Assembly (NCBI RefSeq): GCF_028877475.1
Contig: NZ_CP113527.1
Coordinates: forward strand, 241,501-305,500
Length of the DNA stretch: 64,000 nt
Source of the DNA: Lysinibacillus irui
Lineage (GTDB): Bacteria > Bacillota > Bacilli > Bacillales_A > Planococcaceae
Direction of reading: 5' to 3'
The notes under the pieces were generated by a model. That model was not told where the DNA came from and searched no databases. It saw only the letters and a program-made list of their open reading frames with translations. Both the position numbers and the translations under genes were made by a program. Positions 1 through 11,158 of the stretch are shown here, in pieces. Position 1 is the first letter of the stretch. Each line of letters opens with the position of its first letter.

Positions 1-360
1 GGCTTACTTGTAGCACTTGGCTTCCTACCAAAAATCGCAGCGTTAACAACGATTATTCCAACATCTGTACTAGGTGCGGCGATGCTTGCGATGTTCGGTA
101 TGGTGATTACACAAGGTATGGGCATGCTTGTACCTGTAATGAATGAATCAGCAGAAAACGCGATGATTGCTGCGATATCAGTAAGCTTAGGTGTTGGTGT
201 ATCTGTAGTTCCTGGCATTTTTGATGCACTACCAACAAGCGTTTCAATTCTTACATCTAATGGTATTGTCTGTGGTTCTGTCACAGCAATTATCCTTAAT
301 ATTTTATTCAACATGATTGGACCTAAGCATAAGGAAGACCCAATGCATGGGGAAATATAA
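1..360 (+). CDS. NCS2-family purine/uracil permease, C-terminal part (cut by window start)
   Basis: The reading frame is open from base 1 and ends at TAA 358-360, giving the last 119 residues of a membrane transporter. The residues around PKIAALTTIIPTSVLGAAML and the following hydrophobic segments match the last transmembrane part of NCS2 (xanthine/uracil/uric acid) permeases, proton symporters that import purines or pyrimidines. The 5' part lies outside the window. A near-identical second copy of this 3' end lies at 10606-11034. The left copy ends in Glu-Ile-stop and the right copy in Glu-Ala-stop. Because an integrase gene follows immediately, I infer that this copy is the element-supplied 3' end that keeps the host gene intact after integration. 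Substrate cannot be assigned from the C-terminus alone. Confidence 0.8.
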   Translation, partial: GLLVALGFLPKIAALTTIIPTSVLGAAMLAMFGMVITQGMGMLVPVMNESAENAMIAAISVSLGVGVSVVPGIFDALPTSVSILTSNGIVCGSVTAIILNILFNMIGPKHKEDPMHGEI

Positions 361-463
361 AGGGAAAACTAAATAACATTCATCTAAATACCCCACATAT
401 TTTGATGAAAAGAACGTTGTCACCTACTTTTATCTATTGATTTAGATTTAAGGAGGTGACATT
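1..463 (+). repeat. Left copy of long direct repeat bounding the mobile element
   Basis: Bases 1-463 match 10675-11136 with a constant offset of 10674 through the permease stop codon, then 10672 after a 2-base difference just past it. Differences are few: seven in bases 174-189, one at 317, a handful around the stop codon, and a few in the downstream hairpin. The match begins before the window, so the full repeat is longer. It contains the permease 3' end and its downstream hairpin. Confidence 0.9.
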
Positions 464-466
464 TTT
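419..466 (+). terminator. Permease terminator hairpin whose 3' arm is the integrase Shine-Dalgarno
   Basis: The arms GTCACCTACTT (419-429) and AAGGAGGTGAC (449-459) pair with one mismatch and are followed by ATTTTTT, a rho-independent terminator layout. The 3' arm also contains AGGAGG, placed about 8 bases before the integrase ATG at 468. The same hairpin, slightly altered, follows the right permease copy at 11091-11132. Confidence 0.65.
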
Positions 467-467
467 T

Positions 468-1469
468 ATGCGGAAAAAGGGGTACCTATTAAGGAATGAT
501 ACAAATGATGATACTGAATCACTTACTCTACAGCAGGCTTATGACTATTTTTATTCAGCTAAAAAGGCAGAAAATATTCGAGAAAAAACATTGGTCACCT
601 ATGTAGAACATTTTCGTTTTTTTACTAATTGGTTAGAGATTACGGACTATAAATTGAAAAGTGTTAATGACTTATCAGGAGAAATTGCACGGGCTTATAT
701 TAACTACATGAGGGAAGAACATTACAATTTCAAAACAGGAAAAAGAGGACTGTCTATTCAAACTATCAACGCTAGAATAAGATTTCTAAAAACGTGGTAT
801 TCCTTTTTAAAAAAAGAGAACTTAATAAAAGACAATATTATGCTTACAGTTAATTACTTAAAAGTAGACGAAAAGAAGGTGACGCTATTAACTAAGTATG
901 AAATGGAAAGGTTATTTGAAATACCTGACCAAAAATATTATCCGCAGTGGCGTGATTTTGTGTTGTTCCATGTACTCTACGATAGTTCATTGCGAATTTC
1001 CGAAGCGGTCAATCTCGATGTAATGGATATAGACTTAATGAGGAAACAGATTATCCTTCCAGCAGATAAGGCGAAGGACAGACGATATAGGACAATTCCA
1101 ATATCAAATATAACTGTACAGTTACTAATTAAATTGATTGATGAAAATAAGAAAGTGTTTAAGGATGCGGAAGCTGTTTTCTTGAATTGGTACGGTGAAA
1201 GAATGGCGGTAGACACCTTTAGAAGGAACTTAAAACGTTACCTTAAAAAAGCTGGAATCCATAAGGAATACAGTTGTCATGATTTCAGAAGGCAAGCTAT
1301 TACAGACATGCTTAAGAATGGTGCTTCAGTATTTATGGTACAAGCAATAGCTGGTCATTCACAAATAAGCACTACGAAAAAATACGTTCACTTTGATGAT
1401 GAAACAATAAAAAATCAGCATGATTTGTATAGTCCACTTAATCAAATGGTCTACAAAAGGCGTAGATGA
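468..1469 (+). CDS. Tyrosine recombinase/integrase of the element
   Basis: Catalyses site-specific strand exchange between element and chromosome att sites. The 333-residue protein has an N-terminal SAM-like core-binding region (about 15-115) and a C-terminal catalytic domain. The catalytic residues are visible: Arg in SSLRISEAVNLD, a Lys in the ADKAKDRR hairpin, the HDFRRQ box (His-x-x-Arg), His in GHSQISTTKKY and the nucleophile Tyr at the end of that motif. I chose ATG 468 over the in-frame GTG at 456 because AGGAGG at 451-456 is correctly spaced for 468 and overlaps the GTG. It sits directly after the duplicated permease end, as expected for an integrase next to its att site. Confidence 0.92.
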   Translation: MRKKGYLLRNDTNDDTESLTLQQAYDYFYSAKKAENIREKTLVTYVEHFRFFTNWLEITDYKLKSVNDLSGEIARAYINYMREEHYNFKTGKRGLSIQTINARIRFLKTWYSFLKKENLIKDNIMLTVNYLKVDEKKVTLLTKYEMERLFEIPDQKYYPQWRDFVLFHVLYDSSLRISEAVNLDVMDIDLMRKQIILPADKAKDRRYRTIPISNITVQLLIKLIDENKKVFKDAEAVFLNWYGERMAVDTFRRNLKRYLKKAGIHKEYSCHDFRRQAITDMLKNGASVFMVQAIAGHSQISTTKKYVHFDDETIKNQHDLYSPLNQMVYKRRR

Positions 1470-3834: not shown

Positions 3835-3914
3835 ATTTTACATGTCCTATATTGAATCATATTTGCAAGTGTATCTATGAAAGGATATTTATTAAAACAA
3901 ATGGAGGTAATATA

Positions 3915-5192
3915 GTGACTAATTTATTTATTAAAAGGAAGGCAGTAGCCGCAACAGTTGTCGATTCAATTATGGGTAGTGGTAAAACAAGCTGGGCTAT
4001 TCAATACATCAATGAAAGTAATAACAAAACGAAATTTATGTTTGTTACCCCATACTTAACGGAAGTGAATCGTATCAAAGAATCTACAACAAAGGATTTT
4101 GTAGAACCAGAAAGTCAAGATGGAAAACTAAATCATTTGAAGGAACTAGTTCGTCAAGGGAAGAATGTTGTATGTTCACATGAATTATTAAAACGAACTG
4201 ATAGCGAGTTAATTGAACTTATTGAAGCAGAACACTATACGCTAATCTTGGATGAAGTGATGGATGTAATTAGTGAAATAGATATGTCGTCAGATGATAT
4301 TCGCTTATTACTCAATTCTAATGATGATAAAGGTAATCCGACTATAAATGTAGATGGAAAAGGTAAAGTACAGTGGAACAATCCTGAGTATATGAATGGT
4401 AGCTATGAAGGGGTAAGAAATTTAGCCAATGCAGATCGCTTAATGTTGCATGAAGAAAAGAAGGTTCTAAAAATGTATTGGCTATTCCCACCACAGTTAT
4501 TTAAAGCGTTTGAGGATATTTATATCTTAACGTATATGTTCAATGGGCAGATTCAAAGCTATTACTATAACCTATTTAACTTTGAATATGGGTTCCGTTC
4601 GGTAAAGTATAGTGAAGATAGGGGATATCAGCTAGTAGACTACATTACACCAGCTAACGAGGATAGGAAACATCTTAAAGAGTTAATTACAATCCACTAT
4701 TCAACACCTAGGGATAAGAATGATTTAAATTTGATTGGTGACAAACCTAGTGCATTAAGTAAAAATCATTTACTAGGTGTTAAAACTAAGCAACAACTAA
4801 AAAAGAGGTATAAAGATAACGGTTATAATTTCTACTTTCACAAAGCTAAAGTAAAGCCTTCACAAGTGATTTGGACATCATTTAAGGAAATGAGAAAGCC
4901 ACTACTAATTAAAGGATTAAAGAATAGATTTGTCCCAGTTAATGCAAGGGCTACAAATGAATATGCTGATGCTAATACATGTATTTATTTTGCTAATAGA
5001 TATATGAATCCAATCACTAAGCGTTTCTTTATGGATAAAGGAATAAAAGTAGATGAAGGATTATTTGCATTATCAGAAATGTTGCAATGGATATTTAGAA
5101 GTGCTATTCGGAATGATGAACCTATAACTGTTTATATTCCATCAAAACGTATGAGGGGGTTATTAGAAATGTATTTGGATAATCAAATTTAA
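3915..5192 (+). CDS. P-loop ATPase, DEAD/SF2 helicase-like
   Basis: A 425-residue protein. Near the N-terminus is a Walker A motif, MGSGKTSWAI (about residues 21-30), preceded by VVDSI. It is followed by FVTPYLTEVNRI, resembling helicase motif Ia, and LILDEVMDVI (about 115-124), resembling Walker B/motif II with D-E. No classic SF2 C-terminal motifs (SAT, QxxGRxxR) are evident, although IFRSAIRNDEP near residue 400 could stand in for motif VI. This layout occurs in helicase-like proteins of phages and plasmids with replication or DNA-processing roles. I chose GTG 3915 because GGAGG at 3903 is well placed. The longer ATG 3852 frame has no such site. Exact function unknown. Confidence 0.7.
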   Translation: MTNLFIKRKAVAATVVDSIMGSGKTSWAIQYINESNNKTKFMFVTPYLTEVNRIKESTTKDFVEPESQDGKLNHLKELVRQGKNVVCSHELLKRTDSELIELIEAEHYTLILDEVMDVISEIDMSSDDIRLLLNSNDDKGNPTINVDGKGKVQWNNPEYMNGSYEGVRNLANADRLMLHEEKKVLKMYWLFPPQLFKAFEDIYILTYMFNGQIQSYYYNLFNFEYGFRSVKYSEDRGYQLVDYITPANEDRKHLKELITIHYSTPRDKNDLNLIGDKPSALSKNHLLGVKTKQQLKKRYKDNGYNFYFHKAKVKPSQVIWTSFKEMRKPLLIKGLKNRFVPVNARATNEYADANTCIYFANRYMNPITKRFFMDKGIKVDEGLFALSEMLQWIFRSAIRNDEPITVYIPSKRMRGLLEMYLDNQI

Positions 5193-8474: not shown

Positions 8475-8701
8475 AATGTAGACCTCCTAAATTAGTGTAC
8501 ATAGGAACACTTGCATTATAGAGGTGTTTTAGGACCTGTAAAAAAATATTCAAGATCTTGTGGAACTGAGTTTCGGAAATTAAATCTACAATTATCAAAA
8601 GAGTGACATTTTAAATACTTTATATCAAAATTATCCTATTTACGTAAAAGTATAACTAATTTATAGTTGATATAAAATAATAAACTGAGAGTGAGAGTAT
8701 T

Positions 8702-9382
8702 TTGAAGTTCTATCATTGTACAAAATCAAAAAATGCTAGAAAAATTTTAAAATTAAAAGATCCGAAAAAGATTACTCCTTCTTTATTTACATACATTGAT
8801 TGTTTAAATGATTGGTTAGGAAAACTTTTAAATCCAAATTTTTCGGAAATAAGCAGTGAGGACTTTGTTTTCCCGAGATTTTATTATTCTCAAGGTGAAA
8901 ATAGAACTGTTTTTTGGTTGGGAACAGGATTATATTGTTTTGCGGAAGAGAATAAAGATGAAAGTCCAAATTATGCAAAAAGGAATAATTTAGACGTAAT
9001 ATTAGATATAAATTATTCTGACGAGTATACTGAATTCGAAATGCATAAAAACAAAGACTTGTTAACGAAATTCTTAGAAGATGATGTTGTTGGGTATTTT
9101 AAAGTTAGGGGTTTTTCAGGTGAAAAATTAGAAGCACTCGAACTTGTAGTTCAATATTTAATTTTAGAAATTGAGGACGAATATTTTAAGAATCCACATT
9201 GTGCAGCAGTTATTATAGAAATGTTTATCCATATACTTAATTTGAATTTTGATGTGGTTAGTAATAAATATTTGAAAAATGATGTTAATTTTACTTATGA
9301 TAATTATAGTTCAATAAGAAATTTAGATTTTATATCCGGATTTGAATACAATTATGATTTATCGCATAAAATAAAAGAATAA
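8702..9382 (+). CDS. Putative ADP-ribosyltransferase-like toxin of a toxin-antitoxin-chaperone cassette
   Basis: A 226-residue soluble protein. The start reads KFYHCTKSKNARKIL (residues 2-16), and residues 71-92 read FWLGTGLYCFAEENKD then YAKR. The pair H-x-T near the N-terminus and G-x-G-x-Y-x-F with a following acidic/Ala-rich helix is the pattern of ADP-ribosyltransferase folds of the His-Tyr-Glu type (PARP, DUF3990 and related toxins), with His5 and Tyr78 as candidate NAD-binding residues. A candidate catalytic Glu could lie in DEYTEFEM or in the C-terminal half. TTG 8702 follows GAGAGTGAGAG. It is first in a tight three-gene unit ending with a SecB-like chaperone, the gene order expected of a toxin in a TAC system such as CmdTAC. 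The fold call is from motif reading only. Confidence 0.6.
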   Translation: MKFYHCTKSKNARKILKLKDPKKITPSLFTYIDCLNDWLGKLLNPNFSEISSEDFVFPRFYYSQGENRTVFWLGTGLYCFAEENKDESPNYAKRNNLDVILDINYSDEYTEFEMHKNKDLLTKFLEDDVVGYFKVRGFSGEKLEALELVVQYLILEIEDEYFKNPHCAAVIIEMFIHILNLNFDVVSNKYLKNDVNFTYDNYSSIRNLDFISGFEYNYDLSHKIKE

Positions 9383-9415
9383 ATGTCGATATAATAAAAA
9401 AGGGGGCCTCAATGT

Positions 9416-9811
9416 ATGAAAATCAATGTAGAAAACATGAATCAATTTATGAATGAATTTGAGTATAAGGTTTTCCCGACAATTAAAGGATCAGATGGTC
9501 AAGGTATTGAAAGACTTAAAGCAATTGTAGAAGAGAAAAGAATGGAAGTTACATCTAGAAAAATTAAACGTGAAATTTACGAACAAATTACTAAAAAACC
9601 TAAAATAGTTAAAAGTAATTCAATTGAAAATGAAGAGGATTACCAAAAAATTAATTTTAGAGAAGACACATATAGATTCGATATTAAATTTGATTCGAAA
9701 AAATCTACTAATATAATGTCTAAGGAAGGCTATAAAAATAATAATGAATCAGCCCACATGATATCAGGTGTTAATACAAATTATTCCGAATCTAAATATA
9801 AGATCGCATGA
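9416..9811 (+). CDS. Putative antitoxin of the toxin-antitoxin-chaperone cassette
   Basis: A 131-residue hydrophilic protein with no recognised family. Residues about 1-60 are predicted helical and charged (RLKAIVEEKRMEVTSRKIKR). Residues about 75-131 are low in hydrophobic core and rich in Ser, Asn, Lys and Tyr, as in a flexible tail, with one strand-like patch DTYRFDIKFD. In known TAC systems the antitoxin carries a C-terminal chaperone-addiction segment that SecB-like proteins bind, and this tail is the natural candidate here. The start follows AAAGGGGGCCTCAATGT. Spacing is 33 bases from the upstream gene and 18 to the SecB-like gene, so cotranscription is very likely. The role is assigned by position. 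Confidence 0.55.
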   Translation: MKINVENMNQFMNEFEYKVFPTIKGSDGQGIERLKAIVEEKRMEVTSRKIKREIYEQITKKPKIVKSNSIENEEDYQKINFREDTYRFDIKFDSKKSTNIMSKEGYKNNNESAHMISGVNTNYSESKYKIA

Positions 9812-9829
9812 TTAGAAAGGGTATAAAAA

Positions 9830-10255
9830 ATGTCAGCACCTATTTTTGAATTTAAAGGATATACAATAAATAACTTAATATATTCCAAAAGTAAGATTGA
9901 AGGTATGAAATTTACTGATCCAGATGAAAATTTAGAATTTGAGGCTAATCACGGATTTACAGATGATTTTTCTAAGGGGAAATTAGGTTTAAAAGTTCAA
10001 CTAGCTTCAAAAGAAAACGATTCATTTCTAATATTAGAAGTAGATGGTTTCTTTGATATTGACTCAGGTTTATTAAAGGACGATGAAGGAAACGAAAGGG
10101 ATATTTCAGATGTTCATCATATATTTATAGTGAATGCAGCTGCTATTTTATATCCTTATTTAAGAAGTATAGTTTCTATGGTAACAGGATTGGATAATTC
10201 CAATAATATTATATTACCTACAATAAATTTGCGGAATTTATCAATGGAAAATTAA
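9830..10255 (+). CDS. SecB-like chaperone of the toxin-antitoxin-chaperone cassette
   Basis: A 141-residue protein, close to the roughly 155 residues of SecB. The C-terminal half carries the SecB hallmark: HHIFIVNAAAILYPYLRSIV (97-116) followed by T119-G120 and IILPTINLRNL. This compares with the family pattern N-A-x-x-(L/I)-x-P-Y-x-R-x-x-(I/V)-x-x-x-(T) and a later (L)-P-P-(I)-(N) motif. The N-terminal half has alternating strand residues (GLKVQLA, FLILEVDGFFDI), as in the SecB beta-sheet. Bacillales normally lack housekeeping SecB, so a SecB-like gene on an island behind two small genes fits a dedicated chaperone that folds or protects the antitoxin. The start follows GAAAGGGTATAAAAA, and a terminator lies just past the stop. 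Confidence 0.85.
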   Translation: MSAPIFEFKGYTINNLIYSKSKIEGMKFTDPDENLEFEANHGFTDDFSKGKLGLKVQLASKENDSFLILEVDGFFDIDSGLLKDDEGNERDISDVHHIFIVNAAAILYPYLRSIVSMVTGLDNSNNIILPTINLRNLSMEN

Positions 10256-10605: not shown

Positions 10606-10620
10606 TTCTCACAAAACGTG
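10606..10620. other. Candidate integration junction (attR core) in the permease gene
   Basis: Permease coding sense starts abruptly at TTCTCACAAAACGTG, which encodes Phe-Ser-Gln-Asn-Val, a conserved motif of NCS2 permeases. Upstream sequence is unrelated AT-rich DNA. The boundary between element and host should therefore lie in or just before these bases. The partner copy lies left of the window, so the core length cannot be read directly. Confidence 0.5.
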
Positions 10621-11034
10621 GGGCTAACTCGTATGTCAGGTGTAAAAGATCGTAAAGTCATTTACATCACAGGTGGCTTACTTGTAGCACTTGGCTTCCT
10701 ACCAAAAATCGCAGCGTTAACAACGATTATTCCAACATCTGTACTAGGTGCGGCGATGCTTGCGATGTTCGGTATGGTGATTACACAAGGTATGGGCATG
10801 CTTGTACCTGTAATGAATGAATCAGCAGAAAACGCGATGATTGCTGCCATCGCAGTTAGTCTTGGTGTTGGTGTATCTGTAGTTCCTGGCATTTTTGATG
10901 CACTACCAACAAGCGTTTCAATTCTTACATCTAATGGTATTGTCTGTGGTTCTGTCACAGCAATTATCCTTAATATTTTATTCAACATGATTGGGCCTAA
11001 GCATAAGGAAGACCCAATGCATGGGGAAGCATAG
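10606..11034 (+). pseudogene. Displaced 3' fragment of the NCS2 permease gene
   Basis: Encodes only the C-terminal third of the transporter (from FSQNVGLTRMSGVKDRKV to the stop). The GTG at 10618 that could open the frame is the internal Val/Gly region of the parent gene, and nothing resembling the N-terminal transmembrane part precedes it. From 10675 on it matches the left copy. It ends TAG after Glu-Ala, while the left copy ends TAA after Glu-Ile. I infer that this is the original host 3' end cut off by integration. Confidence 0.85.
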
Positions 11035-11136
11035 GCACAACTAAATAACCTTCATCTAAATATCCCACATATTTTGATGAAAAGAACGTTGTCACCTACT
11101 TTTATCTATTGATTTAGATTTAAGGAGGTGGCATTT
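10675..11136 (+). repeat. Right copy of the long direct repeat
   Basis: Matches 1-463, including about 100 bases downstream of the permease stop and the terminator-like hairpin at 11091-11132. After the hairpin the copies diverge: the left one leads into the integrase ATG, whereas the right one reads ATG followed at once by TAA. Confidence 0.9.
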
Positions 11137-11158
11137 TAGTATGTAAAACAACTATTGT

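What the first reader, a model, noticed from the sequence alone, without database searches (positions are those of the whole stretch)
8702..10255. Toxin-antitoxin-chaperone cassette with a SecB-like chaperone and an ADP-ribosyltransferase-like toxin on a Gram-positive island
Seen: three tightly spaced genes (gaps 33 and 18 bases) with one terminator. The third encodes a clear SecB-like protein (NAAAILYPYLRSIV block), the first a protein with H-x-T and G-x-G-x-Y ART-like motifs, the second a small protein with a flexible tail. Established: SecB-dependent TAC systems include M. tuberculosis HigBA-SecB and the E. coli anti-phage CmdTAC, whose toxin ADP-ribosylates mRNA. Bacillales normally lack housekeeping SecB. 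Inference: this is a CmdTAC-like phage-defence module in Bacillales, with toxin and antitoxin sequences I do not recognise as any named family.
Basis: partly seen in the sequence, partly recalled or inferred. Interest (0 to 1): 0.92.

Follow-up and report, generated by a model that had tools for sequence, protein, structure and literature searches.

The report
Divergent CmdTAC-like toxin-antitoxin-chaperone cassette
A mobile DNA island in a relative of Bacillus carries a three-gene self-poisoning switch that resembles a known phage alarm system of E. coli, but its predicted poison enzyme belongs to a rarer branch with a changed active-site residue and an extra loop, so it may act on something different.

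Summary
In detail: window 8702-10255 (+) holds three intact genes (226, 131, 141 aa; gaps 33 and 18 bp) and a terminator. The third protein matches the CmdC-type model of the CmdTAC phage-defence system (PADLOC PD-T4-9_C, E 1.4e-16). The toxin matches no PADLOC, Pfam or NCBIfam model convincingly, but a profile of it and five relatives aligns with 32 other toxins encoded beside such chaperones (99.2%, score 120.5; best of 200 column shuffles 16.3). Of 18 such toxins scanned, each of two CmdT-type models hits 12; of the six clade toxins, none. The fold model's best viral match is an ADP-ribosyltransferase-like protein; the PDB gave none. The clade (support 99/96) has about 25-40 extra residues between catalytic His and Tyr, and Tyr at the third triad position in 6 of 6. 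I file it as a new variant beside CmdTAC, not as CmdTAC itself. It is cargo of a ~10.7-kb integrase island in a permease gene's 3' end. Phage defence and the target are inferred, not shown.

The parts
8702..9382 (+). toxin gene, predicted ADP-ribosyltransferase, H5-Y78-Y202 triad, 226 aa, TTG start
9416..9811 (+). antitoxin gene, 131 aa, ends -IA; no convincing family match
9830..10255 (+). SecB-like chaperone gene (CmdC type), 141 aa
10254..10277 (.). intrinsic terminator-like hairpin, scores as terminator on both strands
8639..8667 (+). weak sigma-70-like promoter match upstream of the toxin (9 of 12; 19 such sites in the region against 14.5 expected, so no evidence on its own)
1..465 (+). 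left flanking repeat of the island (3' part of a pbuX-like permease gene, name recalled; the repeat begins at window position -68)
10606..11137 (+). right flanking repeat of the island (displaced 3' part of the same gene), 97% identical over 535 columns
456..1469 (+). tyrosine recombinase / integrase of the island

Best explanation
A toxin-antitoxin-chaperone system built like CmdTAC. The antitoxin (gene 2) binds the toxin (gene 1) and is itself kept from degradation by a SecB-like chaperone (gene 3), for which its C-terminal half is the client segment. When a phage product, most likely an unfolded structural protein such as a capsid protein, occupies the chaperone, the antitoxin's exposed C-terminus is taken by a Clp protease. 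The released toxin then uses NAD+ to ADP-ribosylate a cellular target needed for translation, probably RNA, stopping the infected cell before phage are made. Shown here: gene order, chaperone family, toxin homology to CmdT-type toxins, catalytic His and Tyr, antitoxin tail pattern across relatives, mobile setting. Inferred: complex, client relation, protease, phage trigger, enzymatic activity and target. The clade-specific Tyr at the third triad position and the long insertion between His and Tyr (where the donor loop of PARP-type enzymes lies, placement inferred) suggest mono-ADP-ribosylation as in human PARP16 (H-Y-Y) and possibly another substrate site than the GA-adenine of CmdT.
For: PADLOC PD-T4-9_C 1.4e-16 for the chaperone. 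39 of 58 distinct chaperone-bearing loci examined have an ORF with GxGxY two genes upstream (counted); the His column is His in 39 of 39 (the Tyr is there by selection). Toxin profile A vs B: score 113.6, E 3.8e-18; enlarged, 120.5 against at most 16.3 in 200 column shuffles and 8.6-10.8 against antitoxin and chaperone profiles. In alignment A7 (21 toxins, 3 of them of the window's clade) each of two PD-T4-9_A models hits 12 at E<=0.01; since 0 of 6 clade toxins hit, these 12 are among the 18 others. The only Pfam family hit by more than one of the 21 is PARP, 6 members, weak, best E 0.0058. Model pLDDT 80.2, pTM 0.81; the best viral-library match is named ART-PolyVal-like (E 2.4e-4, prob 0.99, TM only 0.32), the second and last with E<=0.001 is a large polyvalent-protein-associated protein whose matched part I did not identify. 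Antitoxins end in [AVILSMC][ASCV] (a pattern set after seeing them) in 38 of 39 and in Ala in 30 of 39; chaperones 0 and 0 of 39; toxins 9 and 0 of 39; CmdA ends LAA and is degraded by ClpP (PMC11618068, passages). ART-motif cassettes lie within 5 kb of the downstream end of viral contigs in 19 of 26, copies included, against 4.6 expected.
Against: No family library recognises toxin or antitoxin convincingly (phrog_14664 at 0.0034). Foldseek against the PDB gave no match with E<=0.001 and no ADP-ribosyltransferase among the 50 of 221 rows shown. TM-scores in the viral library are low. In the reverse test the clade HMM puts only 29 of 34 other toxins above the best of 780 shuffled sequences (9.8 bits); 5 fall below it. 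The window antitoxin ends IA, not LAA. The third triad residue differs from HY-[E,D,Q]. No function was measured.
Confidence: 0.7

Rival explanations
1. Same switch, but kept because it stabilises the island (addiction): loss of the island removes chaperone and antitoxin and the stable toxin kills; phage defence is secondary.
For: Cassette lies beside the right repeat of an integrase island and relatives sit on plasmids and prophages.
Against: The best-studied relative was found by its anti-phage effect and is triggered by a capsid protein (PMC11618068, PMC9519451, passages). Prophage-end position is also a usual place for defence cargo (recalled).
Confidence: 0.2
2. The toxin is an active ADP-ribosyltransferase of another target (protein, tRNA or other) rather than mRNA, the enlarged loop and the H-Y-Y triad marking the changed substrate.
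For: Tyr at the third position in 6 of 6 clade members against Q13/E12/I6/H1/V1 of 33 in the others; His-Tyr spacing 57-73 (n=6) against 28-45 (n=35), no overlap.
Against: Within the other toxins the third position already varies (6 of 33 are Ile), so a change there need not change the target.
Confidence: 0.3
3. The toxin clade has lost transferase activity (pseudo-enzyme like PARP13) and acts by binding only.
For: In the diphtheria-toxin family the third acidic residue is important (recalled); here it is Tyr.
Against: His and the central Tyr are kept in 6 of 6; inactive PARP9 and PARP13 are described as lacking the His, while H-Y-Y PARP16 is listed as mono-transferase (PMC9189837, PMC7955679, passages).
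Confidence: 0.08
4. Ordinary protein-export SecB with two unrelated genes.
For: Relatives are annotated 'protein-export chaperone SecB' in three plasmid records.
Against: Far under the export-SecB cut-offs (best 16.9 of 143 bits); same three-gene order in distant genomes; travels on mobile elements.
Confidence: 0.02

Closest known systems
CmdTAC (PD-T4-9), E. coli ECOR22
   Same: Gene order toxin-antitoxin-SecB-like chaperone; chaperone hits the PD-T4-9_C model; toxin remotely homologous to toxins that hit PD-T4-9_A; His and Tyr motifs; antitoxin with a small hydrophobic C-terminus.
   Different: Toxin not found by the PADLOC CmdT-type models; H-Y-Y instead of HY-[E,D,Q]; about 25-40 extra residues between His and Tyr (against the median of 32 in the others); antitoxin without detectable similarity to those of the other cassettes; Gram-positive island.
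M. tuberculosis HigBA-SecB (Rv1957) and MqsRAC TAC systems
   Same: SecB-like chaperone beside a toxin-antitoxin pair (PMC4257090, PMC9519451, passages).
   Different: Their toxins belong to other families (recalled; endoribonucleases per PMC11618068 passage); no such family hit here; no recognised DNA-binding domain in the antitoxin.
ART-PolyVal / PARP-type ADP-ribosyltransferases of phages and eukaryotes
   Same: H..Y motifs, best viral structure match, weak PARP hits in 6 of 21 aligned toxins; H-Y-Y as in PARP16.
   Different: Low structural scores, no PDB match; sits in a TAC cassette.

Membership tests
CmdTAC | three-gene order T-A-C with a CmdC homologue third | tested here: met
   (that PADLOC's PD-T4-9_C is CmdC is inferred from its letter and its SecB likeness)
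CmdTAC | toxin recognised by a CmdT profile (the published rule uses DefenseFinder's CmdT and CmdC models) | tested here: not met
   tested with PADLOC's PD-T4-9_A models, not DefenseFinder's: 0 of 6 clade toxins hit; linked only through profile-profile comparison
CmdTAC | HY-[E,D,Q] triad | tested here: not met
   H5 and Y78 kept, third position Y202 (same register in hhalign)
CmdTAC | antitoxin ending in a ClpXP signal (LAA) | tested here: inconclusive
   ends -KIA; clade relatives end -LAA, -KSA, -VAA, -KAA and one -CVV
CmdTAC | N6-adenine ADP-ribosylation of GA in mRNA, triggered by phage capsid | not testable with these tools
   needs biochemistry and phage assays
SecB-dependent TAC systems (class) | SecB-like chaperone gene beside a toxin-antitoxin pair | tested here: met
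   (a six-member profile finds E. coli SecB structures at E 0.027)
SecB-dependent TAC systems (class) | antitoxin stability depends on the chaperone through a C-terminal addiction segment | not testable with these tools
   only length and tail ending were seen
ADP-ribosyltransferase fold | ART fold | tested here: inconclusive
   viral library: ART-PolyVal-like best (E 2.4e-4, TM 0.32); PDB: none in the rows shown; no positive control was run
Housekeeping SecB | score over the SecB cut-offs | tested here: not met
   21.2 of 26 bits Pfam; at best 16.9 of 143 bits NCBIfam

The most novel reading that the evidence does not exclude
A distinct H-Y-Y clade of TAC ADP-ribosyltransferases, with an enlarged donor-loop region and its own antitoxins, that shares interchangeable SecB-like sensor chaperones with the CmdT-type toxins but modifies a different target than GA-adenines of mRNA.
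Probability: 0.3. Interest if true: 0.72.

Novelty: new variant of a known kind. Interest (0 to 1): 0.52.

Why it matters
If active, it suggests that the CmdTAC principle (a SecB-like chaperone as phage sensor) is a platform on which toxins and antitoxins are exchanged: toxins of this clade form one side of a branch (99/96), while their chaperones are mixed with four chaperones of the other toxin type inside one 100/99 clade (strongly supported branches alone would still allow a single origin). It offers a natural H-Y-Y enzyme for asking whether the third triad residue or the loop sets the target, in Gram-positive hosts that can be studied in laboratory B. subtilis. The PADLOC 2.0.0 models miss the toxins of this clade (0 of 6).

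Tried and rejected
Tried without result: window toxin against plasmids and phages by tblastn (none); PDB by sequence (matches of chance kind); toxin scans of viral contigs (none); profile of 21 toxins against the PDB (14 matches with E up to 5, best 0.07, most of them influenza haemagglutinin HA2, which I take as chance; PARP10 appears at E 1.5-1.8); PDB fold search (none with E<=0.001). I did not obtain the E. coli CmdT sequence itself; the link to CmdT goes through PADLOC models and Gram-positive and viral-contig relatives. A second fold, of a CmdT-type toxin as positive control for the PDB search, was wanted and never accepted by the busy machine, so the PDB miss has no control here (the published CmdT match to exotoxin A was itself poor, r.m.s.d. 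6.93 A, PMC11618068 passage).

Rejected: export SecB (cut-offs); HigB/RelE-type toxin (no hit); chance similarity of the toxin groups (shuffles). That all antitoxins are one recognisable family is not borne out: clade antitoxins against the others give hhalign probability 0.2%, though these are short, few and divergent, so the test has little power.

Rows dropped: of 67 loci given to, 9 were copies; of 58 distinct ones 19 were dropped from the counts because no GxGxY ORF was found upstream (some carry other partners, in some the ORF was cut or not found by my rule). Three near-copies were left out of the trees and of the enlarged comparison. Near-copies remain in the counts. The toxin tree warns of long branches that meet, L001 with L031 and L018 with L022.

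Full report
Observation. The three ORFs, their spacing and the terminator are as described. The toxin starts with TTG at a place that agrees with its homologues. The cassette is AT-rich: 26.5% G+C against 36.4% for window 11138-64000; 0 of 102 windows of equal length there are as low.

Chaperone. Protein 3 matches PADLOC PD-T4-9_C at 1.4e-16, Pfam SecB at 2.9e-4 but under the cut-off, and a six-member profile finds E. coli SecB structures at E 0.027. It is the only place in its genome found by the PD-T4-9_C model (E<=1e-5) and by the Pfam SecB model (E<=1). In a sample of 398 genomes of the class, 20 have a PD-T4-9_C match. SecB-like genes in Gram-positives, phages and plasmids were described in 2014 and before (PMC4257090, passages including part of the abstract), and CmdTAC relatives in Gram-positives are in print (PMC11618068, passages).

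Toxin. No model in Pfam, NCBIfam or PADLOC finds it (one chance-level Pfam row, E 0.067); the one PHROGs hit is weak (phrog_14664, E 0.0034). They are rare: 3 of 200 genomes of the family sample, own genome included; 2 of 398 of the class sample, own genome included, with a three-row profile; 4 of 261 of the order at E<=1e-6, own genome included, of which one, G003, is the CmdT-type toxin of L010; 5 of 345 in another order at E<=1e-4, of which one (L087) is of this clade, L088 and L089 are CmdT-type by motif, L090 by its position next to L015's, and L091 was not examined; in the family of G668, 1 of 105, G668 itself.

Link to the CmdT family. The chaperone scan of viral contigs gave 40 loci. 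Across 58 distinct chaperone loci, 39 carry an upstream ORF with GxGxY. Five of these are of the window's clade (A); the other 34 are group B. Profile A against B: probability 99.0%, E 3.8e-18. With L087 added to A, L088 to B and near-copies removed (6 against 32): 99.2%, score 120.5; 200 column-shuffled B profiles reach at most 16.3; chaperone and antitoxin profiles 10.8 and 8.6; the window toxin alone 95.3%, score 52.8; L087 alone 95.3%, score 52.3. The B HMM gives the window toxin 33.9 bits, against 8.3 for the best of 780 shuffled sequences; the A HMM puts 29 of 34 B toxins above its best shuffled sequence (9.8 bits) and 5 below. Each of two PD-T4-9_A models, which I take as CmdT from their letter, hits 12 of 21 members of alignment A7 and 0 of 6 clade toxins, so the 12 lie among the 18 B toxins of that alignment. 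Six of the 21 weakly hit PARP, best E 0.0058.

Fold. AlphaFold2 on 21 rows: pLDDT 80.2, pTM 0.81; strand 2-8 carries H5, strand 76-81 carries Y78, strand 198-205 carries Y202. Foldseek, viral library: two of 261 matches have E<=0.001, an ART-PolyVal-like domain-containing protein (2.4e-4, prob 0.99, TMq 0.32) and a large polyvalent-protein-associated protein (3.7e-4); three further entries named ART-PolyVal-like or PolyVal ADP-Ribosyltransferase stand at ranks 7, 17 and 23 with weaker scores. Foldseek, PDB: 221 matches, none with E<=0.001; the 50 shown are mostly HMG-CoA reductase and ribosomal proteins at TMq of 0.10-0.14. The ART reading therefore rests more on sequence profiles and motifs than on structure.

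What is different. In the joint alignment of 39 toxins the His column is His in 39 and the Tyr column Tyr in 39 (Tyr by selection). The third triad position is Tyr in 5 of 5 clade members, against Q 13, E 12, I 6, H 1, V 1 of 33 others with a residue there, one gapped. L087, found afterwards, also has Tyr, making 6 of 6. MAFFT and hhalign give the same register. The distance from His to Tyr is 57-73 residues (n=6) against 28-45, median 32 (n=35). The extra segment lies between the first helix and the Tyr strand, which I place in the donor-loop region of PARP-type enzymes (inferred; that this loop varies among subfamilies and influences activity is from PMC9189837, passage). Human PARP16 is listed with H-Y-Y as a mono-transferase (PMC7955679, PMC9189837, passages), so the change need not abolish activity. 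CmdT is described with HY-[E,D,Q] (PMC11618068, passage).

Antitoxin. No convincing family match. Its tail fits the pattern of the cassettes: 38 of 39 antitoxins end in [AVILSMC][ASCV] (pattern set after looking), 30 of 39 in Ala; chaperones 0 and 0 of 39, toxins 9 and 0 of 39. CmdA ends LAA and is degraded by ClpP without CmdC (PMC11618068, passages). The window's -IA is a shorter form. Clade antitoxins are not detectably related to the others (0.2%; low power); antitoxin variability in CmdTAC is noted in print (PMC9519451, PMC11618068, passages).

Modularity. On the toxin tree the six form one side of a branch (99/96, 98% of bootstrap trees). On the chaperone tree they need three changes (0% of bootstrap trees with one) and lie in one 100/99 clade together with L032, L034, L035 and L088, which have the other toxin type; the starred branches alone force only one change. 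Exchange of toxins between similar chaperones is the simplest reading; long branches make details unsure.

Setting. A pbuX-like permease gene, behind an xpt-like gene (both names recalled from the sequence, no family search), is duplicated at its 3' end: window -68..465 and 10606..11137, 97% over 535 columns, with a tyrosine recombinase gene starting at 456. In the related genome G198 the gene runs on directly into the right flank, an empty site; 32 of 32 genomes of the genus sample, own included, have a match to the query from this gene and its flank. The cassette ends about 350 bp before the right repeat. In viral contigs, ART-motif cassettes lie within 5 kb of the downstream contig end in 19 of 26 (copies included; 25 of 40 for all chaperone loci) against 4.6 (8.6) expected from contig lengths; some contig ends may be assembly ends. 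The E. faecium plasmid cassette (L032, CmdT-type) and the Latilactobacillus phage cassette (L031, this clade) lie between amidase and integrase genes, a usual place for lysogen-borne defence (recalled).

Mechanism. The best reading is a chaperone-guarded abortive-infection switch as in CmdTAC, with the steps marked as shown or inferred in the explanation section. It fails two tested features of CmdTAC proper (CmdT-type model, E/D/Q residue), so it is filed as a sister variant.

Noticed in passing
L020, L021, L024, L026: More distant PD-T4-9_C-type chaperones lie between a 181-193 aa protein and a 241-255 aa protein with a YPxLE motif near its start; a different three-gene arrangement without the GxGxY toxin.
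   Followed up: no
L092 1971-2576; L093 1971-2576: Alphaproteobacterial plasmids (Komagataeibacter, Hoeflea) carry a protein similar to a CmdT-type toxin with no SecB-like gene in the (incomplete) gene table beside it; L092 is cut at the record's start. Perhaps a chaperone-free version.
   Followed up: partly
L089 1411-1998: A CmdT-type toxin ORF (HGT, WLGNGVYFF) in G243 with no ORF of 70 aa or more downstream on its strand in the locus, so apparently without antitoxin and chaperone.
   Followed up: no
G174:C1:2105367 and 2122893; G559:C1:273486 and 275730: Other genomes of the genus have two matches to the permease gene's 3' end about 17.5 kb and 2.2 kb apart, so this gene end may be a common island insertion site with other cargo.
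   Followed up: no
L030 5861-8372: The E. faecalis plasmid cassette lies near annotated AbiGi/AbiGii and Fic genes, further conflict genes.
   Followed up: no
window 3852-5192: Island ORF with a strong match to a phage family of unknown function (phrog_2467, 8e-68) and weak helicase-like hits.
   Followed up: no
group B toxins in L019, L034, L046, L048, L054, L067: Six of the 33 CmdT-type toxins with a residue there have Ile at the third triad position; five of these also have a GKGMYFW-like motif (GPGMYLW in L034).
   Followed up: no
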